A DNA stretch of 64,000 bases from Triatoma infestans. Taxonomy: Eukaryota; Arthropoda; Insecta; Hemiptera; Reduviidae. Below, one piece after another: positions 19,985-59,566 of this stretch; position 1 is the stretch's first letter; every line of letters begins with the position of its first letter. The notes under the pieces were generated by a model. It was not told the origin of the DNA, ran no database searches, and saw only the letters and a list, made by a program, of their open reading frames with translations. A program made the translations under genes and the position numbers. Where the stretch lies: NCBI GenBank assembly GCA_011037195.1, contig JAAEAF010002640.1:1-64000 (forward strand), given 5' to 3'.

Positions 19985-22070
19985 ATAAATAATGTAAAGC
20001 CGTGTGAATAAGTCCATAAAATATTGCAGGAATAGATCTGTATTATTGGTAACAGTATTTAGATCATAAATATTAAGAAAGAAAGATGTAAGTGACTAAC
20101 AAACCGACAGAATGATGTCAACTTGCTTAAAAAACTGCAGTTGCTTGTAGAATGTTACCACAAACCACATCCTCTGTAGTTTTATGTAGTTTGTAGCAGT
20201 CGGGCCCTCCTCCTGCCTACAGAGTGCACTGCTATCGCCACTCAGTCACACTGTATATGACTTTCAAATATATATCCACGGATAACTAGATCATAAAACA
20301 TGATCAGTTAGGGGTGGTCTTTCATTCCCCATACCGCTGTTGCCACCATTACAGATTACGAATGTTTATGTTGGGGTTCTCAAAAAAATAAACATATATA
20401 AATATACAGTCGAGGAAAAAAACACAATTTATTCTCAAATTAAACAATAAAACTTGCATATTAAGTGAATCAAAACATTAGGCACATACCGATTAGTAAA
20501 ACACAAAAAAAACAAGGATGATAGTAAGAACGTAAACAACACGACCCACGAAATCATGTGACTCAAAAAAAAGAAATATTCTTTTTCCAAACATTAAAAC
20601 AAATCGATATATAATCATACATCGATAGCGGCTATAATTCTCAACAGTTTACTCTTGACAATTATATCTTGTAATTATGTACATATATTTTGAGGTGGAA
20701 AACTCATCGACGATTTTCTTTAAAGTTTAGTATACTTGAGTATATAATATTTAGGCCTGGATCTTGTTTTCATAATATCAAGGACAATTACATTTTTATA
20801 GATGAAAACTGCAGAATGAGATGGTTGTGATATGTGAATATTGTGATGGCTGCAATGGTTGGACTGGCTGTGTAACACAATCTGATTTGGAATGTTCACA
20901 CCATTTTCTCCTACTGCCAGTACCAAAATTCCAAATGACAAATTTTCTTCACACTTGGAGTTTTCACTCCATGTGGGTTTATTGAATGTGTGGAGGGGTC
21001 CGCAATAGTGCTGGATAACATCTGGGATTTTATCCAATCGAGGTATGCATATTTTTGATGTTGCTGACCAGTTTCGCATTTACCGTCAGAGAAAAGTTAT
21101 CAAGTTCGAGTAGAGAGTTCACTTCAACTTAGTGTTTTATATTGGGAAGAGGGGACAAGATATTTAAGGAGTATACTATACTCAGAATAGATAACATTTG
21201 AAGGCAATGCAAAGTTTAAGGAAAGAGATGATATATAAATAAATAATTAGAGCAAGTCAAAATGTATTCGTTTGTTATTTATCATGCTTGTTTATGTATA
21301 AATGATGATATTAATAATATGTTGAGAGAGACGCCGTATAATTTGTGGTTTTATATTTAAACAGTGGGAGAAAATCGAGTTTAATAAACTAAAAGGATTA
21401 AAGGTTTTTAAACATTAAATTTTTATTTATTTAATTATGTGTTTGTGGTTTTATTACTGACATTAACCAATTCTTATTATTGAGGGCTGGAAAAATCCAA
21501 CATATGGACATTATTGACTACTATTAGCTCTACATGCTGCAACTCAATATGTTGGTGGTAAACAACCAGCCCCATCTTTTCAACTTTTTTTTTTATATAG
21601 TGAGTGTGCATCATCTTCCGCTATCTTCTCCAGGTCTTACTGGAGATAGGGTAATCTTGAACGCTGTATGCTTTCAGCTACAGAGCTCTAAGCTCTTTTT
21701 ATGAAACAACGTATGTGTGCTTGTTCACTGATGTCTGTCATATTACTTTTGTTCTGTCTTTAAAAATATTTTTCTATGTTTGAGGTGTCTGGTGGAGGTA
21801 AAATGTGATTTTACTACCTATTGTCATGGAGTTATTCTTTTGCTTCTTCATCCTATATTTTTATTTATTTCTAGTAATGAAGTTATAAATACATCGTAGC
21901 GCTTCTGTTTTCATTGTAGCTACAATAGATTTAATGCTTCAAGGGCATACAGATAGACTTTTTGCGGCTTTTGTTTATCTACTGCAACTAAAGATTACAT
22001 GGTTGGCGTAGCCATCTCCGCTACCGCAGTCACATTGTGGCAGTCACTTTAATTTATTTAGACGCGGTTT
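19985..22070. other. Unassigned region
   Basis: Mostly AT-rich. The minus-strand ORF 20720-21079 is listed separately. The stretch 20195-20260 is locally GC-rich. No repeat family, RNA gene or conserved protein motif could be recognised. Confidence 0.3.
20720..21079 (-). CDS. Hypothetical ORF of 119 codons
   Basis: An ATG-initiated frame includes PRLDKIPDVIQHYCGPLHTF and a stretch rich in Ser, His and Asn. Its composition is more balanced than most chance ORFs of this AT-rich window and it has no low-complexity runs. No family is recognised, no signal peptide or membrane segment is obvious, and no splice or polyA context was confirmed. It may be an exon, a repeat-derived frame or chance. Confidence 0.2.
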   Translation of the reverse strand: MRNWSATSKICIPRLDKIPDVIQHYCGPLHTFNKPTWSENSKCEENLSFGILVLAVGENGVNIPNQIVLHSQSNHCSHHNIHISQPSHSAVFIYKNVIVLDIMKTRSRPKYYILKYTKL

Positions 22071-22072
22071 CG

Positions 22073-22720
22073 TGAGATTATGGTTAAACCTAAGCCTTAG
22101 TATAATTGTACACAAAGGCCTTTCTCCTTCCATTGCGACAAACCAAGGCTTTTTGCAGATTTGCGCTTGTATGACGGCGTAATATCAGTTTATATCTCTT
22201 TTCCCGATCATACAACTTTTGTCATGCATTTAAACATTTCTTCAAGACACTTACCAAATCTCCTGAGATCATTACAGGAATGTGTTCTCCCACAGAGTAG
22301 GCTTTTTCCGCTATAATATAGACTTTTTCATTGCCAACGATTCCTAGCGTTTTCCTTTCAACCGTAGCCATTGCATTCTCCAAATGTGTTGCTATTTCAT
22401 TAATAATGAGGTCTGTTAAATCACCGAGTTGGCTTATTTTTTGGAGTGCCCTTTTCTAGTAACAGAAAACCACTATTAGTGGTATACTTCTTATACATCT
22501 GTTACACCAGAACCACGGCTTTAGAGATAGCTACCTTCTCCGAAATAAGTGCCGAAACAATATTTGGGAGCCTAAATTTAAGAGTTTTTCCCGTTTGTAG
22601 GTCTAGCACAGCACAACTCACTCCATGTTCCGATTCATATGTAAACAGCAAATGTGGACTGGCTAATTTGCGGAATAAAGGCCAAATGGGAGTACTCCCC
22701 CCAGACAAAAGTTAAATCTA
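22073..22720 (-). repeat. Coding-like dispersed segment, copy 2, longer
   Basis: The block 22073-22225 matches the one at 17155-17310. On the minus strand upstream, 22450-22230 reads in one frame DLIINEIATHLENAMATVER, then KVYIIAEKAYSVGEHIPVMI, then QKLYDREKRYK after a stop, joining the segment shared with copy 1. A further frame (22708-22502) contains LFTYESEHGVSCAVLDLQTG. This looks like a decayed gene of a mobile or duplicated unit. The family is not recognised. Confidence 0.45.
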
Positions 22721-22824
22721 ATTAACCCATACCTCAGAATCCAAATAAAAATTCAGTTTTTCTTAAAAGAGGTTTGAATTAGTGGTGACAAAATAAATAT
22801 CTTGGCAATTAGTATTACAAGCTT

Positions 22825-23130
22825 AAGGGAGAATCATTCGAGCTGTTTCAGAAAATTTAAAAAAAACACAGACACCTATAATGCTGCTCGTACGGTCAAC
22901 TGATTTTGTTCAAACTTGGAATTCTACTAATGCATTTAATGTACCTTAATATTGTGCCGGTGATGGAAATGGCTCCTTAGAGGAAACCACAACATTCAGT
23001 CCCCACCCTTCAAAAATTAATCTTCCTAGATAAATGTTTCCAATAAAAGTGATAGCCATTTTAAATCGATGTTGTCATTTTTGAAAAAATCGAAATTTGG
23101 TTTAGAGATAGTAGGTATTTACCTTGGGTT
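22825..23130 (-). repeat. Dispersed repeat DR, minus-strand fragment
   Basis: Contains ttcagaaaatttaaaaaaaacac, cggtcaactgattttgttcaaacttgg, ttagaggaaaccacaac, cccacccttcaaaaattaatcttcc and gtttccaataaaagtg, all DR landmarks in reverse orientation. Confidence 0.65.
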
Positions 23131-23680
23131 TTATTAGAGATCGATTCATCATACAATTTATTTGTACACATTTAAGGGCGTAATTAAATTAAGGAATAAA
23201 GTAAAAATAAATACAACTTTTATTAAACAAAAGATACAGAGAGCATAATCAGCTGATTGTGAATCTGAAATACTAACAAGAAATATCATACTATATTATG
23301 TAGGTAGGATTCAGTTAATTTGGCAGTGCGATATATTTACATAATATAGGTTAGAGGATAAGCTGGGCAACGTTAAACATTGATGGTGGCAGCGGCATCT
23401 CTGGGTCAAACAGGGGAACTACGCAGGAGATAGGCTAGCAAGCGGCATGTCAGATGGAGGAACTACCCGCTTAATTTTGAATATTAATAACAAGGTGAAA
23501 TGATTCACCCGGTTGCTAATTGTAAATATGTAATAATAATTAGTAGTTACAAAATTCCGATACAATTCTAACATATCTAAAACCCAATCATATCATGGCG
23601 TGGGTTTGTTAAATATAAGAATAACTTTTAACAAACTTAACATGAAGCTGGGCATGCAATTGTTCATAAGAAGAAAAAAT
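23130..23680. other. Unassigned AT-rich region
   Basis: No gene or repeat recognised. A less AT-rich stretch near 23340-23480 has no open frame with motifs. Confidence 0.3.
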
Positions 23681-23689
23681 CTTTTTTTT

Positions 23690-23925
23690 TCTTTTCTTTT
23701 ATAATTCAAGGCCGTCAACATTCATGGTCATTGGCGCCCGGAGCCTTCTCAGTGCACTGCCGGCTCCACACAGTGCTCTCTCGTTACAGGCAACACTGAC
23801 CGTCACCGGACAGTGAGCTGTAGAGGCTCCTAGGAAGAGAAAATCTATGGACAGCACAGCTGGAATCGAACCTTGGTCCTCCGCGTGGGCGGACAGTACG
23901 CTAACCACTTAGCTATTCCCTTCCT
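23690..23925 (-). mobile_element. tRNA-derived SINE
   Basis: On the minus strand the head reads tagctaagtggttagcg, an A box, and about 35 bp later ggttcgattcc, an exact B box. This gives an internal RNA polymerase III promoter as in a tRNA. A GC-rich body of about 150 bp follows, ending in an A-rich tail (aaaagaaaagaaaaaaaaag). The short word aaaatct flanks both sides (near 23676 and 23928), a possible target duplication. The body does not match any LINE 3' end in this window. Confidence 0.75.
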
Positions 23926-23929
23926 GAAA

Positions 23930-25110
23930 ATCTATAGCAGCATATTGCTTTTTTACAAACGGATGATTGAAATCAAACATCCATTCTATTAAGATAATAT
24001 GATTAAAAATAAAAATAAAAATCCGAAAGTTTTTTTATTTTTACACTGTAGTAGGGCTGAGTATCTTCCTTCCTAATACAACCAACTTACCTTTTCCTAT
24101 TTCTTACCTCATAAACATCAATGCAGTCTATATCATCAATGCAATCTACAATGCACCTGAATGTATAAACTCTCTTACTATTTGTATGTTTGTATGCCTG
24201 TTTTACATGTTTACATTCACATGTATGTTGTAATTAAAAATACATTCACATGGATATTTTTAAGATATTTTCTGTTATACAAAAAAAAGAATTCTCAAAT
24301 AACAAACATAAAAAAAAAAAAATTAAATTATTTGAATAATTCTTTCTCCACTCCATTCTTCGAGTTTTAGCTTCACAATATTTTTGAATAAGTTTTTCAT
24401 TATAATTACTTGTTTGAGAAATCAAGTACTGTCAGTATTTGCTGAATTATAATATTAGGAATGGAAGCCCTTTGTTTTTTTATTTCAATTTTTTTGTGTA
24501 ATTCATTTGAGAAAAACAATTTTTTTGAAGTATTCAACATTAACCACCCATCTTGATAAAGCTACAAAATAATGTATATTTTATTGTATATTTTTATTCT
24601 ATAAAAAATAATATTGAATAAAAAAAATTTTACCGTTAAATCTTTAACGAACAGAATAAAAATATTTTTTTGATTAATATAACCTACACATTGCACACAG
24701 TTTCAATTTACGCGGCCTGGCGAGCGGCTAATATTGCACTAGTTGGGTCACATTATTAAGGCAAGCGAACCTTGTGGGAAATAACCGAATATGACCACTT
24801 TTCGGCCCGGCAAATTGGTCAGCATCAACATCAAGCAACGCTTGATGCGCCATGGTTTGGGGCACCATTCTGGATTTTAGCCAGAAACTATTGTAACGAG
24901 TTTAACTTATAAAATTACAAATTTTAAGAAATTTTAATGAATCAGAAGGGTGAAAGCAATGTGAATGTTTCATAGATGTTTTTTCAAGTGAAAACACAGA
25001 AAATAAGTTAAGAAACTAAATAAAGAACGAACCTTTGCCATGTACCCAAAGCATCTGCTTCAACTTGACTGAATCCTTCCATATTCTTTTATTTCCTACG
25101 TTGAAATACG
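23930..25110. other. Unassigned region, AT-rich with one GC-balanced block
   Basis: AT-rich with A-runs to about 24690. The block 24710-24895 is clearly GC-richer, but no frame with motifs is found. It could be an exon or regulatory block of the neighbouring gene, or an unrelated repeat. 24900-25110 is downstream flank of the coiled-coil gene. Confidence 0.3.
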
Positions 25111-25115
25111 GAAAC

Positions 25116-26030
25116 TTACTCAAAATCAGCCGACTGCGCGACATCCAGCTCATTTAACGCATCACTGCCTTCAGCCTCGTTGGCAAATTTTTCCCAGATA
25201 GTTTGTCGTTGGTTCATTGCCAGTTTCACCTCTTTGCGTAGTTTCTTGTTATCCTGGATCAACAACTTGATATAGGTACCGCGATCCGACAGACCTTTCC
25301 TCATCATTTTCATCAGTTCTGAAGCTTTATCCAGCTGTTTCGTTCGAGTTTTCAACTCCATTTTCATACGTTTTAGCTCATTCAATAAGTCGGTTTCAAT
25401 TTTTGTGCCAGAACTACTCATTTCTGAGGAAGTGTTCACTTGGTTTGTCTCCGATAAGAAAAGTAAATCGGAAAGGTCTTCCCCAGGTAAAAAGTCCAGT
25501 TGTACAGTTTTGAACATCTCTTTTTGCTCTTTATATGTTTCTAATTTAGTTTTCACAGTATTTATCAAATCTGGAGTAAGTTGATCTTCTAATTCGTTAT
25601 AATCGCCAACTTCTTGTGTTGATCGCGTGATGGTACTTTGTTTAGCAAGAACTGCAATATTCCTGCTGGAGCTGCCTTGCTCAACGCCTTCATCTTCAAC
25701 AATACTATCTCCATCTGACTGTTGGTCACCCTCACTCGCATCCTCCGATTCTACATCTTCATCTTCATCAGGCTTTTCAGCCTCCAAATACTCCACTGAA
25801 CCGGCGCTATCTTCACAGTCCTCATTTTCATTGGAATCATCACACGATTCACTACTGTTCACGGTTAAAGTCGCGGACTTATTTACGTCTTGTGCATTGA
25901 GCGATTTGTTACCATTGTCCGCCTGGAAAGGACTAAAATTGCATTCCACTTTACCTGATGTTTGTGCACTTTGTTCACTTAAACTCATTTGCTTGTCTCT
26001 TAACAGCGAACTTTGCTTTCTTGATTCCAT
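25116..26030 (-). CDS. Acidic coiled-coil protein, probable host gene (single exon or first coding exon)
   Basis: A 304-codon intact frame on the minus strand, the only long open frame here without transposon motifs. Residues about 1-60 are polar. About 60-120 is a highly acidic Ser/Asp/Glu stretch (EKPDEDEDVESEDASEGD). Residues 150-190 contain LEDQLTPDLINTVKTKLETY, and about 210-280 is a heptad-rich Lys/Glu/Leu coiled coil (LLNELKRMKMELKTRTKQLD). No catalytic motif, signal peptide or membrane segment is visible. The stop TAA (25116-25118) sits within GA|GTAAGT, a strong splice-donor match, and an AATAAA signal lies about 25 bp further on. So either this is the 3' end of the gene or the exon continues by splicing. 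The family is not recognised; a structural or cytoskeletal role is only a guess. Confidence 0.6.
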   Translation of the reverse strand: MESRKQSSLLRDKQMSLSEQSAQTSGKVECNFSPFQADNGNKSLNAQDVNKSATLTVNSSESCDDSNENEDCEDSAGSVEYLEAEKPDEDEDVESEDASEGDQQSDGDSIVEDEGVEQGSSSRNIAVLAKQSTITRSTQEVGDYNELEDQLTPDLINTVKTKLETYKEQKEMFKTVQLDFLPGEDLSDLLFLSETNQVNTSSEMSSSGTKIETDLLNELKRMKMELKTRTKQLDKASELMKMMRKGLSDRGTYIKLLIQDNKKLRKEVKLAMNQRQTIWEKFANEAEGSDALNELDVAQSADFE

Positions 26031-26500
26031 TATGTCTGGATTCTTCAGAAATAAAAAATGAAAATTTTAAACTATTTTAATAAACACAGAACACACTCGA
26101 TAACAATTTATATAACCAATGTGATCTTCAGTAACTTATTTAAACAAATCACCATGGAAATCGCATTGTTAATAGTTCCTTTATTGACCCATAGAGTGCA
26201 TAGTCATTAAATGAGACATTTAGTTGTTAACAGTTTCCATCATATTTACACAAAAAAAAGAAGACCAATTGTTTAAATAACTATTAAATATAATTGGTTT
26301 AGTATAATGGAATTGCTTGAACACTTACCGTATTTATACCCGTTTAATAAGCTTCCGTACTCACTGTCTTTTGTTCTTATTCATACGCATTTGCTATTTA
26401 CTTTCTCTGTGTAGTCCTTGCAATGACATTTGCCTAACATCCCAGATCAAAATACCCAAAAATCAATGTTTCAACGCATCCATTTTGAGTTTGTGATGTA
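26031..26500. other. Probable 5' flank of the coiled-coil gene
   Basis: A T-rich tract just before aatccag (26045-26036, minus) could be a 3' splice site feeding the ATG exon, or part of the 5' UTR. No clear TATA box or initiator is distinguishable in this AT-rich DNA. Confidence 0.3.
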
Positions 26501-35219: not shown

Positions 35220-36000
35220 TAAATTTCTCTTACTGCTGTAAGAGGTAATACCAAGATCGAGTCAAATTTAAAAATCATTGGAAATAGGTGTTTTGAAGTC
35301 CTGTTAGTAGAAATTAATTGAAGTCCTCTCAGTAGAAATTAATTGAAGTCCTCTCAGTAGAAATTAATTGAAGTCCTCTCAGCAGAAATTAATTGAAGTC
35401 CTGTTAGTAGAAATTAGTTGAAGTCCTCTCAGTAGAAATTAATTGAAGTCCTCTCAGCAGAAATTAATTGAAGTCCTCTCAGTAGAAATTAATTGAAGTC
35501 CTCTCAGCAGAAACTAATTGAAGTCCTGTTAGTAGAAATTAGTTGAAGTCCTGTTAGTAGAAATTAATTGAAGTCCTCTCAGTAGAAATAAATTGAAGTC
35601 CTCTCAGCAGAAATTAATTGAAGTCCTCTCAGCAGAAATTAATTGAAGTCCTGTTAGTAGAAATTAATTGAAGTCCTCTCAGTAGAAATTAATTGAAGTC
35701 CTCTCAGCAGAAATTAATTGAAGTCCTCTCAGTAGAAATTAATTGAAGTCCTCTCAGCAGAAACTAATTGAAGTCCTGTTAGTAGAAATTAGTTGAAGTC
35801 CTGTTAGTAGAAATTAATTGAAGTCCTCTCAGTAGAAATTAATTGAAGTCCTCTCAGCAGAAATTAATTGAAGTCCTCTCAGCAGAAATTAATTGAAGTC
35901 CTGTTAGTAGAAATTAATTGAAGTCCTGTCAGTAGAAATTAATTTTATAGTGAAATTTCTGGTTGAAAGAAAATTTTGTGTGATGTGAAATATGTGGTAC
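35220..36000 (+). repeat. DR edge expanded into a minisatellite
   Basis: Starts as DR (ctcttactgctgtaagaggtaatacc...ggaaataggtgttttgaagtcctg) and then becomes the 25-bp array. The repeat unit appears to derive from the DR sequence gaggtcccctgagtcc. Confidence 0.6.
35295..35944. repeat. 25-bp minisatellite, 26 units, with a 10-unit higher-order period
   Basis: The unit is gaagtcctctcagtagaaat plus taatt. All 26 units are exactly 25 bp (650 bp in total). Variants (ctgttag or ctctcag, tag or cag, aaatt or aaact, taatt or tagtt) recur in the same order in units 5-14 and 15-24, giving a 250-bp higher-order repeat with a few differences. There are no spacers, so this is not CRISPR-like. Confidence 0.95.
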
Positions 36001-36360
36001 AGGAAAAGGCACAGCAAGCAGGAACTAGTTGTTCCCTTTAAATTCGATTAAATCCGACACGAAAATTTTGTTAAAAATCGAAATCGATTGGAAATGGAAT
36101 AAATTAGAGAATAAGTTTATTTTTTTAATTTTTTTTTAGACAGTTGGAAACGATTTCCATTAGAATGAAATGCTAACTGCACATATAATAATCTTGTCTC
36201 TTTTATTTGAAGTAGAAAATAATATTTTTGGCGTCTAGGAAATTTGTGAGTTCGTCTGAACTTCAACTCTATAACTGGTGTTACTATGGAGACGCCAGAG
36301 GGCACTGTTGTACTCACATTCAGATATATCATGTGCCCTACAAATTAATAAATATTATCT
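36000..36360. other. Unassigned spacer
   Basis: Short AT-rich region with a 71-codon minus ORF lacking any motif. Nothing recognised. Confidence 0.3.
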
Positions 36361-36597
36361 TCACATATGGGGTTATGTTTCCCTTTTAAGTGCTATTTCA
36401 ATTTATTATATAATTGTATCAACTAAACATTATTAAATACAATTGAATACTATTGCCAATATTCTGGGTTTGAAGAAAATCGGTTGACCGGAAGTGCGTT
36501 TTTTCGGTTTTCTGAGATTTTCTCGTAAACGGTTTCAACTATTTTCTAAACTTGTTATTCCGACTACACATATATAGAGTTTAAACTGTTATTTAAA

Positions 36598-36865
36598 ACA
36601 ATGAGATGTTTGTACGGCAATGGCCAGAGGAGTTTTTAAAGAAAAAGAATTCTTTGTTGCTTTACGTTTCGGGTACCATTGGTGCCCTTCTTCAGGAGCT
36701 CTGTAAAAATTTATTGGAGAAAATACAGCATTTTACAGTATAGTGGTTGTAAAAAAGTGCATAGATTTATAACAAAAAAAAAAAAAATTAAATCAAAGAA
36801 ATGTTAACAGAAGAAATTATAAAACAGAAGTGTTTTATAATGTTGTTTTATAATTTTATATGTTT
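36598..36865 (-). mobile_element. Hammerhead-containing insertion, 268 bp, 9-bp target duplication
   Basis: TTATTTAAA at 36589-36597 and 36866-36874 bounds a block absent from other DR copies, where aacttttatttgaaacattt is continuous. The block contains one hammerhead-like core on the minus strand and an A-rich run (36775-36787). No ORF. It is unlike the two palindromic insertions because only one ribozyme-like unit is present. Confidence 0.65.
36652..36705 (-). ncRNA. Hammerhead ribozyme candidate
   Basis: The minus strand reads CTGAAGA (36695-36689) and stem II GGGcACC-AAT-GGTaCCC (6 pairs, one mismatch). It continues with GAAAC (36670-36666), a self-complementary ACGT as stem III, and A at the cleavage site. 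Stem I pairs GCT with AGC after one mismatch. All core residues are met. Confidence 0.6.
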
Positions 36866-36911
36866 TATTTAAACCATTTCTCCGAAAAAATTCATTTCGT
36901 TTTAGGCCCCC

Positions 36912-37268
36912 CTAAAATAGGCCAAATTTATATTTCAATTGACTGTGTAATTTCGTAAGAAACAAGTAACAAGTGCGATGTTTTTTAACAAAAAAGTGGT
37001 TGTAATCAAATTCTGGCATATCGCGCAAATAATAATAAGCCTGATACTCAAAACTTAATTTTGAAACTTCTACATTAAAATACGGTGTCAAATCAGTCTT
37101 AGTGATGTAAGATAGTACTCTGTTCGAATTACGAACCCCTTGCACGTTAACATTTTCAGTGTCGAAACAGAAACAAATGAATTCCCTTACCTGTTCGTAT
37201 CTAACGGGTTCTTCAAATTTGAAATAGCAGTGGAGATGCGTTTGACAACACACAAATGATTAAGTTAT
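36912..37268 (-). pseudogene. rep: Viral Rep nuclease (HUH) domain, 5'-truncated and inverted
   Basis: The minus frame includes THLHCYFKF, the two-His metal-binding motif II, and 40 residues later RVLSYITK, the YxxK motif III with its catalytic Tyr. A linker region (FEYQAYYYLRDMPEF) follows, as in CRESS Reps. Motif I is missing: a TAA lies just before the preserved segment. The nuclease nicks the viral origin to start rolling-circle replication. Its strand is opposite to the helicase half immediately adjacent, so a local inversion of roughly 330 bp has taken place. The segment is shorter than an intact domain. Confidence 0.75.
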
Positions 37269-37272
37269 TATT

Positions 37273-37703
37273 ACAAAAAAAGGCATCTCTATTTATTTGG
37301 TGAAAGCAATGTTGGTAAAACTTATTTCACGATGTTACTGAGTAAATACTTGGGTAATCGTGTGTACTACGCGTCAGACGAAAAACCGCTTTTCGATATT
37401 TGTTCTGATCACAAATTAATTATATTTGAAGAATTTGATATTAGAAAGTATAATTTAGAATGGTTAAAGCAATTATTAGCTGGTGATGTTTGCTACATAA
37501 AACGGAAGTACGCTGGCGAACGTGTGTACGTCAATACAATACCAATTATTCTAGTCAGTAACTACAGACCAATTAATGGCACAGCATTTCTAAACCGACT
37601 ACATGTAATTGAGGCTGACTGTATGTTACAGGATATCGAAGAAGGAACTTCACAAGAAGTTACAACTTTCCATATCGGAGACGATTCTACTGATACCGAC
37701 TAA
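37273..37703 (+). pseudogene. rep: Viral Rep helicase (SF3) domain
   Basis: The open frame has Walker A GESNVGKT at 37299-37322, Walker B KLIIFEEFD near 37413-37439 and motif C PIILVSNY near 37548. The spacing is normal for CRESS Rep helicases. It ends in an acidic tail (GDDSTDTD) with stop TAA at 37701-37703. It has no stops from Walker A to the end. The nuclease half that should precede it lies on the opposite strand. The cap ATG begins 2 bp after the rep stop. Confidence 0.85.
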
Positions 37704-37705
37704 AC

Positions 37706-38552
37706 ATGTACTACCGAAGACGATACAGACGATACTACAGGAGAATACCACGACGTTATATTGGTACTTGGAATTACAGTCCTATTACTTACTTCACTCA
37801 CAAATTTACAAAAGTTGGTAGTTTATTGACAATGGGTGGATTCGGATCTAACTTCGAGGAATTTCAGTGTATGATATATCCATATGGAGCTCCCACAAAT
37901 TTGGCGGGAGATCCAAACGATTGGGGTACCAATCCTGAAATAAAAATGATACTAGCCAGATATTCTAAATTTAAATTATACAAAGTTACTCAGGTTATAC
38001 ACCAGATTAAGCCGTTCACTTTCAGCGATAGCTGATGAACATGCCACGGCTGAACAAAAGTACGCCATTGCAAAGTACTATCAAGACCGGTATGCAGTTC
38101 AAACCGATCCAAGTAGAACTGAAATTGATAACTTAGATAACTACGTGTTCAATGAGACACCACTAACTAATGCTTCAATGCAGACATTTCGAACTGGTAA
38201 CATTACATTATACGATGACGAAATTTCATACTCCGACATTGGTGACAACTTAGACTTACCAGCTAAACGAGATAAAAAAATTACTCCCCAAAGTCGTTTG
38301 ATAACACGCTATTACCCAAAGTGCCAACGTTATGCATCTACCAACAATTTTTATATGAGTCAAAGTTCTAGTTTTATTAAGTGGTTGAATTTGCAACATG
38401 CACTGCGGGCACCTACGTTGCTATATGGTCGTTTGATGCCAGAATTAATACCAGCATCTATGAAAGACGACACTTTTAGATTAATTGGTTCATATGCTGT
38501 TTGTGAAGTGAAAATTTATTACACTATTAAATTTTGTGGCTTCCGTGTATAG
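37706..38552 (+). pseudogene. cap: Viral capsid protein, one frameshift
   Basis: The start at 37706 gives a strongly basic N-terminus (MYYRRRYRRYYRR), the DNA-binding arm typical of circo/cyclo-like capsids. A beta-rich body follows (TYFTHKFTKVGSLLTMGG). A single-base frameshift lies near 38010-38030, where the first frame ends in SFS-like residues and TGA. The second frame then runs open to 38552, with EVKIYYTIKFCGFRV as the last strand. Total length of about 280 codons is normal for a small CRESS capsid. No family-level assignment is made. Confidence 0.75.
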
Positions 38553-38569
38553 GAGGTGTATAGGGGGTG

Positions 38570-38745
38570 AATAGGGGATGTATGTTTTCTCAAAAAAACA
38601 TTTTATTGCAGTTGAGATGCTCCCACTGATATAAAACTGAAGACAAATAAACATTTAGTGTAAATTATTAGGTTTGAATAAAATTTGCCACTTGAAACTG
38701 CAGTAAGAGAAGGTCTGCAACATGGCAATCTGAGCCACATACTCC
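38570..38745 (+). repeat. Dispersed repeat DR, right part after the viral copy
   Basis: Resumes with ggggatgtatgttttctc, gatgctcccactgatataaaactg, ttaggtttgaataaaatttgcc and gcagtaagagaaggtctgc, the last part of DR. Confidence 0.65.
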
Positions 38746-39590
38746 CTTTCAAAGGTGTTGTCTCTATTAGTTTCCTAATGGATGGATAATTCTTTTGTTA
38801 TAGTTATCATTCTTTTTATTTTTTAATAATTTATGGAACCATCCATTTATTTATTATTTTCTGTTTACTTTTACACTTGCCTACCTCCATCGATCGAAAT
38901 ATTAAGTTACGCAATTGAAGGAAGAAGTCTAGTTGTAGAATCCTTGAGTCCTTTAGTGTTATTTATGTAAGACAATAGGATTGTGTCGGACAGTATCTTC
39001 AGTCTTAGATCTCAGTTTTTATTTACGTAAATGTCTGAGTTGGACATATTGAGAGAAATAACACCATGTCAATTCCAGGCAATTTTCTTTCTGACTGTTT
39101 TCATACACAACGGTTTCCTTCATTGAACGCTTCCAAACCCACAACTGCAATTTACATTCTCTGATTACGTCATTCGTTTTCGAAAGAAATGTGGCCTACT
39201 ATGGAGACTTATTTTAGGTAAAAGAAATTTATATTAAACTGGCGTAAGTAAGCTAAGTACTAACGTTAGTAAATAATTATTTACTAACGTTAGTACTTAG
39301 CTTAAATTAAATTAAATTAAATTTTAATTTAAAAGCTTAATTAAATTAAAACAATTGGACAAATGGAATGATTATTATTTCAGAGGATCTTGACCGTCCC
39401 GGGGGGGGAGGGGGGGGGGGTTGAACACTTACTATTGAACAGGAACAGGTACTGACGTCACTGTAGGTAACTCCTAAGTCTCAAAGGAATCGGTATTTTG
39501 GCCGCACTATCAGCGATCTCTAATAGCTAGAAAGCAGATGTTTAACCAGTTCAAGGTATGTTTACATTAGAGTTGGTTTGTTATGTTTTT
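38745..39590. other. Unassigned region with palindrome and G-tract
   Basis: No gene recognised. It contains the perfect palindrome 39250-39303, an attaaatt-type tandem (39304-39350) and a run of G with few interruptions (39400-39420). Confidence 0.5.
39250..39303. repeat. Perfect 54-bp palindrome
   Basis: Each 27-bp arm begins aagctaagtactaacgttag and reads identically on both strands with no spacer. It would extrude as a long hairpin. The palindromic word taacgtta recurs inside each arm. Confidence 0.95.
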
Positions 39591-39700: not shown

Positions 39701-40720
39701 GACTTTCTCTTACACAATTTAATCTAATTAAGAAATTTTCTTAAAAATTGCAACGTTACAATGTTAATTGGGGTGGAATTTAATTGTTTACCTGAGCGGC
39801 CTTATCTGGAGCACTCTATGTCAAAACCAGGAATGTTTGTGCAAATTTAAATGTAAACAAACTCCCAGACCTCCAATATCCCACAAATATCAATATTTTC
39901 AGAAAAATGTTACAAATAAAAGTGTTACGGTTCTGTCTATGCAGCAGTGCATTCCAAGTTTGAAGAAAATCGTTGTAACTGTTTTCGAGAAAATTCTAAA
40001 AAACTCACAAACCTATTCTGAAAAATCGCATTGCCGGTAAACCGATTTCTTGAAATTTGAAATTCTAGCAATGCGACTAATGTGTATTGTTAATTCCTTG
40101 CTAAAAACCAAATATTATACTGAAGCGGTATTTAGAGGGAAGTATAACGGTACTGTTCTCCCAGAAACTCACAAACCTATTCTGAAAAATCGCACTGCCG
40201 GTAAACCGATTTCTTGAAATTTGAAATTCTAGCAATGCGACTAATGTGTATTGTTAATTCCTTGCTAAAAACCAAATATTATACTGAAGCGGTATTTAGA
40301 GGGAAGTATAACGGTACTGTTCTCCCAGAAAACTCTATACAATCATTTCCTAGGAAAATGTTTAATATAAGTGATAGGATTTAGTGTGTAGATAATATTA
40401 GAATTACAAAGAAAACCAGTGGCGCCGTTTTCGAGACAATCACGAAAACTGAAGAAAAACATTCACTAATGTCGCACTTCTGGTTGAGGACTTTGCACGA
40501 AATCTTCGTGTCTGATACGGTGGTGGTACCTAAACAGAATACCAAGTTGGAGCTTTCCGCGGCATTTCGTTTTTGAGTATTTTGTAAACATACCTACACA
40601 CAGACCATTCTTTCAAAACATTTCTTTCGTATTCAAGGACGCCAAAACATATATTATTGGTAAAAAGTCAATTTCGAAAGCCTGGTAAGATCGCAATACT
40701 TGCTCTTACTATGGAATAAG
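39700..40720 (-). repeat. Dispersed repeat DR, minus-strand copy with internal tandem duplication
   Basis: Landmarks include acgactttctcttacac, ttacaaataaaagtgttacgg and aagaaaatcgttgtaactg. It then has two copies of a 164-bp segment (40001-40328), agtggcgccgttttcgag, cacttctggttgagg, cttcgtgtctgatacgg and the edge gcaatacttgctcttac. Confidence 0.75.
40001..40328. repeat. Tandem duplication, two units of 164 bp
   Basis: Unit 1 starts aaactcacaaacctattctg at 40001 and unit 2 starts with the same word at 40165. By eye they differ at one position (cattgcc or cactgcc). This is a recent local duplication inside a DR copy. Confidence 0.9.
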
Positions 40721-51366: not shown

Positions 51367-52133
51367 ATGGGAGTGGTATTTAACGCATCCGCTAAAGATG
51401 TTAACAACATTTCTCTTAACGATTGCTTAATGCCAGGGCCCAAACTTCAACGGGACATTCATGCCATTTTATTATCATTTCGTTTGCATGCCGTGGCGTT
51501 GTGCGCCGATATTGAGAAAATGTATCGCCAAATATTGGTGCGCCCGGAGGATCGCGTACACCAACACATTGTTTGTCGTACTGGCTCCAACGCGACCATT
51601 CAAGAAATGGAGCTCAACACTGTAACATACGGTCTAACTCCTTCTGCCTTTCTGGCTCAGCGTGTTCTCATTCAACTCGCGCATGATGAGTGTGAACGAT
51701 TTCCTCTTGCCTCTCAGGCGCTCCGGCATTGCACATACGTCGATGATATCATCACCGGTGCCCCTAATATTGATGCCGCACAGACACTTCGCCATCAACT
51801 CATTGAATTACTAAATAAAGGTGGATTCACCTTGAAAAAATGGTCATCAAACCACTCAAACCTCTTCAATGAATGGCAGGATGATCCGCATTGTTCTGCG
51901 ATACGATTTCACGCTGATGACATTTCAATTAAAATTCTGGGAATCCTATGGGATCCATTATCTGACACGTTTCGTTTTCTGTTTCGCCATTCGAAGGTGA
52001 GCTCTCCAAAAGAAATCTACTTTGATACATTGCTCGTATTTTCGATCCTTTAGGTTTTTTAGCTCCCATTACGTCCACGTTAAAATTTCTGCTGCAACAG
52101 TTATGGATCGCAAATCTAGATTGGGATGACACG
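51367..52133 (+). pseudogene. BEL/Pao reverse transcriptase
   Basis: The frame opens inside RT with VVFNASAKDVNNISLNDCLM, then ALCADIEKMYRQILVRPEDR, MELNTVTYGLTPSAFLAQR, CTYVDDIITGAPNID (YVDD catalytic box) and LLNKGGFTLKKWSSN. A frameshift near 52015 moves to ARIFDPLGFLAPIT and LQQLWIANLDWDDT. The Gypsy-type element then interrupts directly. The N-terminal part of pol is missing. Confidence 0.85.
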
Positions 52134-52437
52134 AGTTATATAACCAAAACAGTCTACATTCCACTTTATCATTTCCTCTTCCTGGAACCTTGATATAAGG
52201 TCATCCTTTTACTATAAATATGGCAGTCCTCTCTTGGCAAAGACAGTTCTGCTCTACCATTCAACAAGTGACAACACTCTATCCAAGTAAGTCGTGAACA
52301 CTCTTCCCTTCCCCTGCATATTTTACATTAACTGTTTAATTTATGAACTTTTGTAATTGAATTTAACTATTGTATTATTGAGAAAAATAAACTTTGCATT
52401 TTTTAAAAACTAACAAACAGTTGTGTAAAATATAACT
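52134..52437 (+). repeat. Errantivirus-like 5' LTR
   Basis: AGTTAT/ATAACT inverted ends. A possible TATA-type box (actataaatatgg, near 52210) and AATAAA (near 52387) place U3, R and U5 in the usual order. Confidence 0.85.
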
Positions 52438-52456
52438 GGCGCCCGATTGCAGAGAC
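52436..52456 (+). promoter_or_regulatory. Primer-binding site
   Basis: tggcgcccgattgcagagac follows directly after the 5' LTR. The TGGCGCC start pairs with the CCA-end of a tRNA, as in retroviral and Gypsy PBSs. The tRNA species is not assigned. Confidence 0.7.
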
Positions 52457-52841
52457 TCGAAATTTGTGCCAATTAGTATTTCGGTAGTGATTTAAATCCT
52501 CAACATACAACAACTCAGCCTAGGTGAGAAAAAGATTGAGAGAGAGAGCAAGAAGACATCGAAACAACATAACATCACACGTCACAGGTGGGCGGAACTC
52601 AAATATAAATAAATTTATCATTACTATTCTTTTATTGTTATTCTTTTATTCTATCATAATCTTAGCAGTAAATAATCTTTTTTATGTTAACTAATACTAT
52701 TGTCCCAGTTTCTTAAGGCCCATTACCCTGCTGAAACAATATATTAAAAACAGATAAAGTAGGCAAGGGAATTAATTAAACAAAAACCCCCTAAGTAAAA
52801 GTCCACGTAATTCTATTGTAATCACCCGAACTGTTATAAAG

Positions 52842-53942
52842 ATGTCCCTCGTACCACAAATTAACACCGATATACCTCCAATCCTTACCCCCCAGACATC
52901 CCAGGCGTCAACCCTTACTCCGGAGACTGAAGTCCAACAGACTCCCCGTTCCCGTATAAGTCAGCCAGTAATAAGAATAAACCACCAATTGCGTAAAGAA
53001 GATTATGACCACATTCCCACCTTCAGTGGAAAGCCTAGCGAATTACTATATTTCGTACAAACAGTAGAGGATGTCTACAATGTAACTTGTCAACCTAATA
53101 TTGTTGAAAGAACGACAAACGAATACTTACTACTCAACAAAGTCAAAGCGAAGCTTACGGGTCAAGCACAGTCCCTAATCCTAACAAAAAAAATTCATAC
53201 TATTAAAGACCTTTTAGACTTGATTAAAAGAAACTTTTCCTATTCCAAATCATTTGAAAAATTAAAAGCGGAAATGTACAATATGAAACCAAACTTTAAA
53301 GAACTCCCAGAAGAATATCTCCTTCGACTAAGGACAATTAGACACTTAATATTTGCCAAATATATGATCGACGGAATAGACGAAAATACAACCACAACCT
53401 CCATGCAATATGTAGACAAAGAAATTATCCACCACTTTTACTCTACAGTACCGTGGCAATTGTCCAACCATATAATGTCTTTCAATCCCGTATCAGTAGA
53501 AGAATTAGCACAAATTCTAAATACGAAGTGCACGTTCATTATCGATCAACTCTATAGAAAACCCCAAACAACTCAAAAACCCCCAGCACAACACAATCCT
53601 TCTCCTAGAAGATTTCAACCAGCCCAATCATCATATCAACCATTTTATCGTAACTCCAACTCTCCCTCGACCTCTAACTATCCTCCTCCGCTAATGCAAA
53701 TACAAACATCTTACAGACCTCCTACCAACAATCCTAGAGGTCATCCACAACCACCCAGACAAAATCCAAGACCAGCAAATCCATCAAACTCTTACAGGAG
53801 AAACCCAGCACCACTACACATGACAACACATGACTCCCAAGACCCCCAACTAAAAAAATTAAATGAAAGAATAGATCAACTCGAGAATTTTTTAGAAGAC
53901 GGCGACTCCAGCAGTGTAAGTCCAAAGAGCAACCGCAAGTAA
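52842..53942 (+). CDS. gag: gag polyprotein (366 aa), intact
   Basis: The ATG at 52842 opens an uninterrupted frame. The N-terminus is Pro/Thr-rich. The capsid-like part reads HIPTFSGKPSELLYFVQTVE, then KLTGQAQSLILTKK. The C-terminal third is basic and Pro/Asn/Gln-rich (RRFQPAQSSYQPFYRNSNSP) without a CCHC knuckle, as usual in gypsy-type errantivirus Gag. A short acidic tail ends at stop 53940-53942. The pol frame begins around the same point in the -1 frame, so ribosomal frameshifting is expected. Confidence 0.85.
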   Translation: MSLVPQINTDIPPILTPQTSQASTLTPETEVQQTPRSRISQPVIRINHQLRKEDYDHIPTFSGKPSELLYFVQTVEDVYNVTCQPNIVERTTNEYLLLNKVKAKLTGQAQSLILTKKIHTIKDLLDLIKRNFSYSKSFEKLKAEMYNMKPNFKELPEEYLLRLRTIRHLIFAKYMIDGIDENTTTTSMQYVDKEIIHHFYSTVPWQLSNHIMSFNPVSVEELAQILNTKCTFIIDQLYRKPQTTQKPPAQHNPSPRRFQPAQSSYQPFYRNSNSPSTSNYPPPLMQIQTSYRPPTNNPRGHPQPPRQNPRPANPSNSYRRNPAPLHMTTHDSQDPQLKKLNERIDQLENFLEDGDSSSVSPKSNRK

Positions 53943-56900
53943 AAACTAAACAGCTATCTAACTGTAAAGACAAGCCCCAAAACGAAACAAAAACACTCCC
54001 TTACTGTAAGGACAAACTCCAAAACAAATGGCTGATCGATACAGGATCAACCAGGAATTACATCACACCTACATCAATACCCCCCGACACACCAATTCAC
54101 GCTGAACCCTTCTCTATAACCACACCAGCGGGATCTAGAGACGGAAATTCCTATATCAATCTCAACCTTCAACCCCATTTCGGAATTAATTACGAAGCCA
54201 AACTCTATGTATTTCCATTCTCAAACGATTACCACATGTTACTTGGACAAGAAACAATGACTAAACTCAACCTGGTCTTAGACTTCAATACGAACACTAT
54301 TACTTATCCTGGTGTTACAATTGCAATTGAAAACTCAGAAAACAATGACATTTCCTTACACATCAAACACTATAACAAACTACCTACAAAAGAAATAGAA
54401 AAAATCATAAGAACAGAACACATGTTACCAGAAGAAAAAACTCCTTTACTAAAACTTTTAACCAAATACCCCAAAATAATAAGACTAGAGAATGACAAAC
54501 TAAGCTCCACAAATCTACTAAAACATGAAATAAAAACAGAAGACAACATCCCCGTATACTCGCGTAACTACAGGTACCCTGTAGTTTATAAGGAAAAAGT
54601 GAATCAGGAAATCAAAAAACTATTAGACAATCAAATAATCAGACCCTCAAAATCACCCTACAACTCCCCAATATGGGTAGTCCCGAAAAAACCAGACGCA
54701 TCCGGTAAGGAAAAAATACGCGTCGTAGTGGACTACAGAAATTTAAATAAGAAAACAATTAGCGATAGATTTCCTTTACCCAACATCGAGGACCTATTAA
54801 ACCAATTGGGAAAAGCCAAATACTTTAGTGCTATAGATCTAGCATCCGGATTCCACCAAATAGAAATGGAACCTAATTCAATAGCAAAAACTGCCTTCAG
54901 CACCGACTCAGGACACTATGAGTTCTTGAGAATGCCCTTCGGTCTAAAGAATGCTCCACCCACATTCCAAAGAGCAATGAATATCGTGTTTGCCAACACC
55001 GAAAACGTATTGGTATACATGGACGATATAATAATATTCTCCAAAACAATCGACCAGCATATTTCAGACCTGGAAAAAACATTCAAGCTACTCGAACAGC
55101 ATAACCTCAAAATCCAACTAGATAAAACAGAATTCTTTAAGAAAGAAATCACATTCTTAGGGCATATTATATCGGCTCAAGGGATACGACCGAATCCAAT
55201 TAAAATTCTAGCAGTAAAAGAGTTCCCAATACCAAAACCCAAAAACAAATCAAACAATTCTTAGGACTCACAGGATATTATCGCAAAATGATTAAAAACT
55301 ATGCAAAGGTAGCGAAACCCCTAACCGAGAAACTAAGACAAAACAACGACCCTATAAAACCAGATGATACTTACGTAGAAGCCTTTAATAAACTAAAAAA
55401 CATGCTAATCAACAGCCCCATACTACAATTCCCTGATTTCAGTAAGACCTTTACCTTAACTACTGACGCTTCTAACTATGCCATAGGAGCAGTCCTATCA
55501 CAAAACGTATCCGGAAAAGACCTTCCCATCTCTTACGCCTCCCGCACACTAAATAAACGAGAAGAAAACCTCAGTACCATAGAAAAAGAGCTATTGGCCA
55601 TTGTATGGGCATGTAAACATTTCAGACCCTATCTATACGGAAGAAACTTTATAATTTGCACCGATCACAAACCGTTGCAATACTTACATAATATGAAGGA
55701 CCCCAGTGCAAAACTACTTAGATGGAAGAACCAATTATCCGATTATGATTTCGAAATAAAACATGTAGACGGGAAAACCAACTACGTTGCAGACGCCCTG
55801 TCCCGCAATCCTGTTCCCTTAAATATCATACTTGGAGACGTCCCAAATATAGCAACACCATCAGATCAAGCTGACGACATGAATGAAGTCAACCCTTTTG
55901 ACCCTCTCGAGTCCCCCTATCTAGAACAGATCCTAGAAAGACCCCTAGAAGATGATGAAATCTCAAAAATAATAAACGAAATCGACCCCCCAGAAGAAAT
56001 ACCCCCAATGGACCTAGAAGAAATAATCATGGACGCCCTAAGAGAAATAAATGATTCCCCAAAAGAAATAAATGATTCCCCAAAAGAAATAAACGGTCCC
56101 CAATGCAATGAGTCCCAAAAAAATCCCCTAGATAACAATGAAGTAACCGAGGAAGCAATCCCCAATCAATTTATAATCATTGCAGATAAAAAGAAATGTG
56201 TGAACACTGAGAAACACCAAATACACATAAATATTGGTAACCCTGAAAACAGTAAATCAAAAACCTACTTCGGCAACCGCACGAGATTAATATGGCTAGT
56301 TGCATGGCCACATAAAGAAGTACTGACCAAACATTGCTTAGAATTCCTTAAACCCAATACTACATACGGCCTGTATTGTTCTAACCAAGCCACAGTAATG
56401 AACAATATTTTAGAAGACGTATTTAAAATATTCCAAGAAGTTATAGCAACAACTTACCCCACTATACGAATAAAAAGATATTTCAAAATTAACATTGACG
56501 TCGAAACCAGAAACGATCAAATCGAATTGATCCAGAATTACCACATAGGCAAAACATGTCACCGCGGCATTAATGATACCTACGAAAAACTAAAAGCAAA
56601 ATACTACTGGCCCCGCATGACAGATAGCATCACGGAAGTTATTAATAATTGCGACACATGCAAAAGAGCAAAGTATGAACGAAACCCCCCAAAACAGAAA
56701 TTTAAATTAACTCCTACACCCAGCAAACCTTTTGAGAAACTACAAATTGATACCCTATTTTTCTCAAATACTCCCATCCTAACACTAATAGACTGCTTCT
56801 CAAAGAGAATGACCGCTTTCATAATTACCTCAACCAATAGTACAGAAGTAATAGACAAACTGAGAGACTATCTTAGCAACTTCCCTGCGCCCCAAGAAAT

Positions 56901-57615
56901 CCAAGCAGATAATGGAAAAGAATTCGCTAATAAGGGATTCGAATCATTTTTAAATTACAATAATATCACCCTCTATTTAACTACTCCACACCATCATAAT
57001 TCCAACGGCCTCATCAACCGCGCACACTCCACACTGATAGAGTTACTCAACCTAATTCGTACAGACGAACCCAAATTACCACTAACCCAAACACTATAAC
57101 TCGCAATGATAGCCTATAACAATACACCAAATGGAACACTGAAACTCAGCCCTAATGAAATTAGTTTCGGAACCACTTTCCCCACAGAGCAAAATCAAGC
57201 CACTATCTTCGAAGTCCAAATCGAGGAATATCATAAAGAAAAACAATTAATCCACAAAGCTATCAAGAGCCTAATTGAAAAAGAAAAAACAGAAAGAACT
57301 GACTTACTCAATGAAGACAGAGAAAACATAGACATACCCCCAGGCAAAATATATGTAAAAACCCATAATCGAAATAAAGCCAAGCCCAAGTACAAACCTG
57401 TAATATATGACCCAACTAAACAAAAAATACTAACAGGCAAAACAAAAGAGACAAAAATACATCCTACACAACTTAAACGCCCCAGAAAATTTGAAGACCA
57501 CTCAAGTGAACTTTCTTGTTCGCAGGGCAGACAAACTAATGGAAACCGACATGACTACCCTAACATCCATAACAATTATGATTCTCCTAAGCCTGGAACT
57601 AGTGACAACCTATAA
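53930..57615 (+). pseudogene. pol: pol polyprotein (protease, RT, RNase H, integrase), two lesions
   Basis: Protease: KWLIDTGSTRNYI near 54030. RT: FPLPNIEDLLNQLG, FSAIDLASGFHQIEM, FGLKNAPPTFQRAM and VYMDDIIIFSK (catalytic Asp pair, about 55015). RNase H: LTTDASNYAIGAVLSQ and ICTDHKPLQYLHN. Integrase: an H...H...C...C finger (YHIGKTCHRGINDTYEKLK to NCDTCKRAK), QIDTLFF and IQADNGKEF supply the two Asp. At the usual Glu the sequence reads SNGLINRAHSTL, with Asn instead. A frameshift lies in an A-rich run near 55240-55262 and an in-frame TAA at 57097-57099. The chain ends at 57615 and overlaps the env start. A short GAAATAAATGATTCCCCAAA repeat (three units, 56045-56096) lies between RNase H and integrase. 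Confidence 0.85.
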
Positions 57616-58657
57616 AAGCACCAGTATACATAAAGGCCCCGGTATAATTCCCATCAAGATACAGGATTCCTATATGATTAATAAATACTTTACCTATATG
57701 CATTCCATCAATATCACCTCCCTCCAGGAAGAATTAAACAATATCGATTATACCCTTAACTCCCTAAAAGAACCAAAAAGAGATCCAAAACAAACCTATA
57801 TCGAACACCTCAAAATTAACTCCCATTCCTTACTACGTTCCTACATGAAAGCTCACATCAAGTACGCACAAAACAAACTAGACCACGTTCTTGTAAACTC
57901 AAAAGTCACCAGACCAAAACGCGGCTTAATAAACGCCCTAGGTACCGCAATATCCTGGATAACCGGTAATATGGACGCCAATGACAAAAAGTACTACGAC
58001 CAAATGATACGAAAGATAGAAAAGAATGACTATCACTTAGAACATAACGTTTTACAACAATTAACCATCAACAAAAAACTCATAAACGAATTTAATAAAG
58101 ATATCGCGATCATCCGCGACAACAACCAAAAGGTAAAGAAATTATTAAACTATGATATCAGTAATACCATGGAAATAAACCAACTATACGCCACCCTCCA
58201 TTCGGCCCTTACCCTTATAATTAATAAAATCAACGATCTAGATGACTCAGTAGAATTCTGCAAATTAGGAATTATACATAGTAGCATTATTTCACAAAAG
58301 GAATTAATGCAACTGCAATATATTAACAACATCAAATTGATAGCCAACAATGCGAAATTTCTATGGCAAGTCGGAAAAACCTATTGCTCAATCACCCCTA
58401 CACACCTTCATTATTTAGTCCAACTCCCTGTTGAAACCCCTTTAACAGAAACCTATTTCCTCCTATCTTACCCCTACGATCACTTAAATCAAACATTTAC
58501 CATATCCACTTTTCCCTCACTAATCCTGAAAACTGATAAACTATACACAGCTCAGTGTGAACTCCTATTAAATAATTATTATTGTAAAAATGCAACCATT
58601 ATAGACAATGAATGTATATTTAATCTTTTAATAATATGGAAGACAAATGTAAAATAA
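57491..58657 (+). pseudogene. env: env, N-terminal and central part (fusion-protein type)
   Basis: A 388-codon frame overlaps the end of pol. After an N-terminal hydrophobic segment (TLTSITIMILLSLELV, likely signal peptide), residues 141-144 are RPKR, a furin-type site. A glycine/alanine hydrophobic stretch follows (GLINALGTAISWITG), as in the gypsy/baculovirus F family. The rest is helix-rich. The frame is lost near 58625-58657 by a shift into the next piece. Env of this type is used for entry in infectious errantiviruses, but the lesion makes this copy non-functional. Confidence 0.8.
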
Positions 58658-59211
58658 TAACTATCCCTAAGCCCAAACCTTTTGTAAAGTATATAGACAT
58701 TGTCAATAAATACTTAATATATGAAACACCAATTGTAAACATTAAGAAAAACAATGCAAGTTTCACTGTAAATATTAAGAATACTGCTTTATTAACTCTC
58801 GAAAATGGAGAGCAGATTATCAATTGTAAACCCATTTATGTTTATAATGAATTTGAAAATGTATTAATCAACCCATCCATTCCCAATACATACGATACCC
58901 TTAATATCTCCTTCCTTACCCTTCACGACTTAAATATAAAAATGAAACCCCTGGAAGAGCTCGAAGAAGAACCACCCTCAGGCCATACATCAACTCTGTT
59001 CATCATAACAATCGTCGCTCTCTGCCTCTCAATCGCTCACATAATAGTGCAACACAGAAAACGAATCTACAAACTTATAATAACAAAAAGGGAATCACGA
59101 CCACAACAAATAGAAACCATGGAAGACACACCAATACCTCTTCAGCAGCAGCCAAGTCACACCTTTTCAACAACCATGGCAGCCTACCAACAACATCTTC
59201 AGATGCAGTAA
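58636..59211 (+). pseudogene. env: env, C-terminal part with membrane anchor
   Basis: Continues env in another frame. An ectodomain stretch precedes a single membrane segment (STLFIITIVALCLSIAHIIV). A basic cytoplasmic tail follows (QHRKRIYKLIITKRES), ending in a Gln/Pro-rich end at stop 59209-59211. The order fits the end of gypsy-type Env. About 50 bp separates it from the 3' purine tract and LTR. Confidence 0.75.
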
Positions 59212-59251
59212 TCATCCAGAACCTCCAAATTTCGTGAGGACACGAAAACTT

Positions 59252-59262
59252 AAGGACGGAGG
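59252..59262 (+). promoter_or_regulatory. Polypurine tract of the errantivirus-like element
   Basis: aaggacggagg immediately before the 3' LTR start at 59263 is the expected plus-strand primer site. Confidence 0.7.
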
Positions 59263-59566
59263 AGTTATATAACCAAAATAGTCTACATTCCACTTTATCA
59301 TTTCCTCTTCCTGGAACCTTGATATAAGGTCATCCTTTTACTATAAATATGGCAGTCCTCTCTTGGCAAAGACAGTTCTGCTCTACCATTCAACAAGTGA
59401 CACCACTCTATCCAAGTAAGTCGTGAACATTCCTCCCTTTCCCTACATATTTTACATTAACTGTTTAATTTATGAACTTTTGTAATTGAATTTAACTATT
59501 GTATTATTGAGAAAAATAAACTTTGCATTTTTTAAAAACTAACAAACAGTTGTGTAAAATATAACT
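59263..59566 (+). repeat. Errantivirus-like 3' LTR
   Basis: Same length and ends as the 5' LTR. About six differences by eye, most of them clustered in 59420-59455. Confidence 0.85.

What the first reader, a model, noticed from the sequence alone, without database searches (positions are those of the whole stretch)
36912..38570. Endogenous CRESS-DNA virus with both Rep and Cap
Seen: two-His HUH motif (THLHCYFKF), YITK, Walker A GESNVGKT, Walker B, motif C, and an Arg-rich capsid start, all within 1.65 kb. Known: this combination is specific to circular Rep-encoding ssDNA viruses. Most insect EVEs of this type keep only rep, so a linked cap preserving nearly its full length is uncommon. It sits inside an interspersed repeat, so it is genomic rather than contaminating virus.
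Basis: partly seen in the sequence, partly recalled or inferred. Interest (0 to 1): 0.9.

Follow-up and report, generated by a model that had tools for sequence, protein, structure and literature searches.

The report
Scrambled fossil of small DNA virus
An insect-like genome carries the decayed remains of a small single-stranded-DNA virus, with a replication gene broken by an inversion and a probable capsid gene beside it; such fossils are known, but the capsid part is seldom reported from invertebrates.

Summary
About 36907-38573 holds a HUH-endonuclease piece, an SF3 helicase and an Arg-rich, capsid-like frame; the HUH and SF3 patterns occur once each in the window and in 0 of 300 Markov windows.

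The HUH piece (motifs II and III, no motif I) lies on the minus strand; helicase and cap lie on plus, two bases apart, and cap has one frameshift. It is a dead relic split by an inversion.

Two pieces of one dispersed host repeat flank it in the same orientation, so it is genomic. A second, more decayed HUH fragment lies at about 23928-24221, minus strand.

The helicase has four Pfam matches, one above cut-off. The HUH match is below cut-off. The capsid has no homology support and its fold failed. No exogenous relative was found, but the viral collection seems to lack CRESS viruses, so that says little; the own-genome search did not complete.

Verdict: a real endogenous CRESS-type relic, ordinary in kind, of interest for its probable linked capsid.

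The parts
36369..36594 (+). Left piece of the host repeat R (model positions 28-269)
   Evidence: nhmmer E 3.6e-26 with a model of three other R copies, source copies masked
36600..36832 (.). Another genomic repeat inside or beside R, left of the relic
   Evidence: 80% identical to L149 over 36600-36832 and 94% to L143 over 36600-36701, both from the same assembly
36900..36917 (.). Left joint: 7-base inverted repeat with a 4-base loop
   Evidence: 7-base arms with loops of 0-8 bases start at 123 places in the 64 kb window, so this may be chance
36912..37253 (-). HUH endonuclease piece of Rep: motif II THLHCYFKF, motif III YITK, linker; no motif I
   Evidence: Pfam Gemini_AL1 E 8.9e-4, below cut-off, profile 49-104 of 113
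37257..37703 (+). SF3 helicase piece of Rep, from just before Walker A to the stop codon
   Evidence: Pfam DUF5906 E 2.3e-6 above cut-off, three further SF3 profiles below cut-off
37706..38035 (+). N part of the probable capsid frame, 9 Arg in the first 25 residues
   Evidence: no relevant profile or PDB hit
38028..38552 (+). C part of the probable capsid frame, after one frameshift
   Evidence: open frame; no profile or PDB hit; fold failed, pLDDT 32.7
38545..38583 (.). 3.5 copies of an 11-base unit from the cap stop into the right host joint
38574..38705 (+). Right piece of the host repeat R (model positions 317-455)
   Evidence: nhmmer E 7.3e-18
23928..24221 (-). Second, frameshifted fragment related to the HUH piece
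   Evidence: tblastn E 5.1e-4, better than 500 of 500 shuffled queries; phmmer E 1.1e-6; DNA alignment not above shuffles

Best explanation
The captured piece ran from HUH motif II to the end of cap. During joining, or later, its first third (HUH) was inverted, with a breakpoint in the linker before the helicase. As it stands it cannot make an intact Rep, because the two enzymatic domains face opposite ways and motif I is missing, and cap has a frameshift. Shown: the pieces, their strands, the frameshift and the host flanks. Inferred: that both Rep pieces come from one virus and one event, that the third frame is a capsid, and the break-repair route.
For: HUH and SF3 profile matches; motif patterns in 0 of 300 Markov windows; rep stop and cap start two bases apart; laid end to end in their own directions the Rep pieces leave 78 residues from the motif III Tyr to the Walker A Gly, against about 75 that I recall for porcine circovirus 2; same-orientation pieces of host repeat R on both sides; no poly(A) at the right end and no shared direct repeat longer than 5 bases between the two edges examined.
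Against: No viral relative was found for any piece. The helicase scores no better against the RNA_helicase profile than against papillomavirus and parvovirus profiles, and its best PDB matches are NS1 and AAV Rep. The cap has no homology or fold support. A second HUH fragment without helicase in the same window shows that HUH-only fragments occur here. The 100 bases directly left of the relic resemble R only weakly.
Confidence: 0.65

Rival explanations
1. Two independent insertions: a HUH-Rep fragment on the minus strand, and at another time a helicase-cap fragment from the same or another virus next to it.
For: A HUH-like fragment without a recognisable helicase lies elsewhere in the window, also on the minus strand.
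Against: The two pieces complement each other, ending and starting in the Rep linker with a plausible 78-residue spacing.
Confidence: 0.2
2. Twin priming: a LINE reverse-transcribed a viral rep-cap transcript and inverted its 5' part.
For: The order of parts (inverted 5' piece, then sense 3' piece, breakpoint in the same linker) is what twin priming gives (recalled); LINE-like frames lie in the window (my reading).
Against: No poly(A) after cap; no direct repeat longer than 5 bases between the edges. Not all LINEs need poly(A) (recalled).
Confidence: 0.1
3. Not a CRESS virus: a relic of another SF3-helicase virus or mobile element, such as a parvovirus-like one.
For: NS1 and E1 profiles and PDB chains match the helicase.
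Against: The HUH piece has its best Pfam match to the geminivirus Rep domain; HUH and helicase together are compact, and the frame behind is Arg-rich and short.
Confidence: 0.08
4. Assembly error: the block, or its internal inversion, is a misjoin of a contaminating virus.
For: None found; reads were not available.
Against: Two pieces of one host repeat flank it in one orientation; it is truncated and frameshifted.
Confidence: 0.03

Closest known systems
Circularisvirus-like CRESS genomes of dragonflies, spiders and bat faeces (PMC6186406, section 11 read)
   Same: Genes in line on one strand, small genome (about 1.9-2 kb), arthropod association
   Different: No sequence comparison could be made here; the relic is incomplete and rearranged
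Endogenous cyclovirus of the tapeworm Hymenolepis microstoma (PMC6186406, section 13 read)
   Same: An integrated rep interrupted at Walker A and followed by partial capsid: a precedent for rep plus cap in an invertebrate genome
   Different: There Rep and capsid are recognisable as cyclovirus; here neither is close to a known virus by our searches, and the Rep pieces face opposite ways
Endogenous circovirus-like rep elements of invertebrates (PMC6069186 and PMC4573495, passages)
   Same: CRESS Rep relics in host DNA; some in PMC4573495 are flanked by interspersed repeats
   Different: PMC6069186 says all its new elements came from rep and none from cap (675 animal genomes, 307 invertebrate species); it also says cap-derived elements of genus Circovirus are known

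Membership tests
Cressdnaviricota (CRESS-DNA virus) | HUH motif I in Rep | tested here: not met
   not seen in frames beside motif II; profile match starts at position 49 of 113; the piece is truncated there
Cressdnaviricota (CRESS-DNA virus) | HUH motifs II and III with one Tyr | tested here: met
   THLHCYFKF and YITK; Gemini_AL1 E 8.9e-4 below cut-off
Cressdnaviricota (CRESS-DNA virus) | SF3 helicase with Walker A, Walker B and motif C | tested here: met
   the SF3 subgroup is not settled
Cressdnaviricota (CRESS-DNA virus) | HUH and helicase in one continuous Rep | tested here: not met
   opposite strands; hence filed as a rearranged relic, not as a virus genome
Cressdnaviricota (CRESS-DNA virus) | Jelly-roll capsid gene | tested here: inconclusive
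   no relevant hit; fold failed; Arg-rich start
Cressdnaviricota (CRESS-DNA virus) | Origin nonanucleotide on a stem-loop | tested here: inconclusive
   one NANTATTAC match in 36000-39500, at 37266, inside the helicase frame; 25 in the window on both strands
Circoviridae | rep and cap on opposite strands | tested here: not met
   cap is on the strand of the helicase; ambisense layout of circoviruses from PMC6069186
Circularisvirus-like group | rep and cap in line | tested here: met
   helicase and cap in line, two bases apart
Circularisvirus-like group | Rep phylogeny | not tested
   no CRESS sequences were available here
LINE (twin-primed) insertion | Target-site duplication | tested here: not met
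   no direct repeat longer than 5 bases between 36885-36912 and 38548-38592
LINE (twin-primed) insertion | poly(A) tail at the 3' end | tested here: not met
   sequence after the cap stop

The most novel reading that the evidence does not exclude
The relic belongs to an unsampled lineage of in-line (rep-cap) CRESS viruses of this host group, with a helicase no nearer to the CRESS-type model than to papilloma- and parvovirus ones and a capsid unlike known ones; the lineage entered this genome at least twice, so the host genome would be its only known record.
Probability: 0.3. Interest if true: 0.6.

Novelty: new member of a known kind. Interest (0 to 1): 0.4.

Why it matters
Capsids of invertebrate CRESS viruses are hard to recognise by similarity, and the survey whose passages I read (PMC6069186) found only rep relics in its new set. 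A relic that keeps a candidate capsid frame two bases behind a recognisable helicase would tie a capsid to a Rep and to a host by linkage. The inverted first part is also a record of how such viral DNA is joined into chromosomes.

Tried and rejected
Exogenous relatives: scans of viral contigs with pieces or motifs gave none. Among the 107 loci, tblastn of the helicase piece gave at best E 0.003 over 39 aligned residues around Walker A. As a control, 0 of the 21 loci with the HLQGYxEF pattern had a Walker A in the same open frame, so I judge that this collection lacks CRESS viruses and that its negatives mean little. Protein database: 11, 3 and 30 candidates, 0 at E 0.01; one search was limited by the length rule to about 81-257 residues, below the usual Rep length (recalled). 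Plasmids (E limit 1) and GTDB contigs: none.

Folds: cap C piece (pLDDT 32.7) and HUH piece (38.3) failed, so no fold search was made; the helicase was not folded. PHROGs, NCBIfam and PADLOC gave only weak helicase hits, plus unrelated chance-level ones. The DNA alignment of the two HUH fragments scored 46 against a maximum of 61 in 200 shuffles, so only the protein-level match is significant. Pairwise empty-site tests of the 100 bases left of the relic were weak: 43 of 1349 (26k copy), 43 of 1349 (2k copy), 132 and 64 of 1349 (39.9k and 34.7k copies) and 76 of 2000 (L132) background scores were as high; the 46k copy did better (1 of 1349). The profile matched the outer R pieces clearly but gave no hit on those 100 bases. 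R has internal repeats, so two separate R copies at the flanks are not wholly excluded. A helicase hit at 29403 (phmmer E 0.018) lies in a LINE-like region and was not accepted. A possible third HUH fragment in L142 (E 0.11) was looked at and not accepted.

Full report
What is there. The window is eukaryotic and insect-like (my judgement from its LTR retroelements). At 36912-37253 on the minus strand a frame of 113 residues holds HUH motif II (THLHCYFKF) and motif III (YITK). At 37257-37703 on the plus strand a frame holds Walker A (GESNVGKT), Walker B (IIFEEFD) and motif C (PIILVSN). Two bases after its stop an Arg-rich frame begins at 37706; after one frameshift near 38028 it continues in another frame to 38552. 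The HUH and SF3 patterns, written after seeing the motifs, occur once each in the window and in 0 of 300 Markov windows.

Identity. The HUH piece matches Pfam's geminivirus Rep domain at E 8.9e-4, below cut-off, over profile positions 49-104 of 113, so the part that would hold motif I is missing. The helicase matches DUF5906 at 2.3e-6, above cut-off, and papillomavirus E1, parvovirus NS1 and RNA_helicase at 1.8e-4, 5.6e-4 and 1e-3, all three below cut-off. Its best PDB matches are NS1 chains (E 0.0012 and 0.0037), then AAV Rep at E 0.07 or worse. It is an SF3 helicase; its viral group is not settled by this alone. The HUH piece, the compact layout and the Arg-rich frame behind the helicase favour CRESS. 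The third frame is called capsid only by position, length and nine Arg in its first 25 residues. No library gave a relevant hit and the fold of its C part failed.

Arrangement. The HUH piece faces left; helicase and cap face right. Laid end to end in their own directions the two Rep pieces leave 78 residues between the motif III Tyr and the Walker A Gly; I recall about 75 for porcine circovirus 2. So a single Rep, 5'-truncated and inverted in its first part, is the simplest reading. The left joint holds a 7-base inverted repeat, but such repeats are common enough in the window that it may be chance. A TATTATTAC string lies beside the inversion joint; with 25 NANTATTAC matches in the window this is probably chance too.

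Setting. A profile built from three other copies of the host repeat R matches 36369-36594 (model 28-269) and 38574-38705 (model 317-455), both in the same orientation. Between them lie another genomic repeat at 36600-36832, about 70 bases that resemble R only weakly, and the relic. R-like sequence is abundant in 200 kb sampled from the same assembly: 35 and 38 blastn matches to two R queries. This supports integration into the genome, without reads.

A second fragment. The HUH piece finds a frameshifted relative at about 24221-23928, minus strand: tblastn E 5.1e-4, while the best of 500 shuffled queries reached 0.005; phmmer E 1.1e-6. The DNA alignment is not above shuffles. No significant helicase or cap match was found in 21000-26500 around it. 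So related Reps entered more than once, or one entry was copied long ago. In the 200 kb sample no piece had a tblastn match below E 0.1.

How it came about. Most likely viral DNA was used as filler in repair of a break within R, with an inversion of its first part. Twin priming by a LINE predicts the same order of parts, but there is no poly(A) and no shared direct repeat longer than 5 bases at the edges. Two separate insertions cannot be excluded.

What is known. PMC6069186 (passages) screened 675 animal genomes, 307 of them invertebrate species; all its new elements derived from rep and none from cap, and it suggests that divergent caps may escape detection. PMC6186406 (sections 11 and 13) describes circularisviruses of dragonflies and spiders with genes in line, and a tapeworm relic with rep interrupted at Walker A followed by partial capsid. 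PMC4573495 (passages) reports circovirus-like relics in crustaceans. Eight literature searches were answered; I saw no title or abstract among their listings that describes a relic of this arrangement in an insect, but the listings are capped and the library holds only part of the literature. I class it as a new member of a known kind.

Limits. The own-genome search did not complete (19 calls), the viral collection seems to lack CRESS viruses, and joining the Rep pieces or the cap frames was left out by rule.

Noticed in passing
52842-59211, within 51367-61132: A gypsy-type retroelement with reverse transcriptase, RNase H, integrase and an env-like frame (Pfam Gypsy, E 2.4e-5, below cut-off), apparently nested in another LTR element whose parts (RVT_1; H2C2 and DUF5641) lie on either side.
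   Followed up: partly
35293-35944: Satellite of about 26 copies of a 25-base unit with a 125-base higher-order period, not seen in the 200 kb sample.
   Followed up: partly
39249-39304: A perfect 56-base palindrome without a loop.
   Followed up: no
40001-40331: A 164-base tandem duplication, 99% identical, within an R-like repeat.
   Followed up: no
L142:6732-6809: A THLHIYFK string resembling HUH motif II in another contig of the same assembly; tblastn E 0.11, not accepted.
   Followed up: partly
25116-26030: A 304-residue acidic open frame on the minus strand with no Pfam match at E 0.001; possibly a host gene or retrocopy.
   Followed up: no
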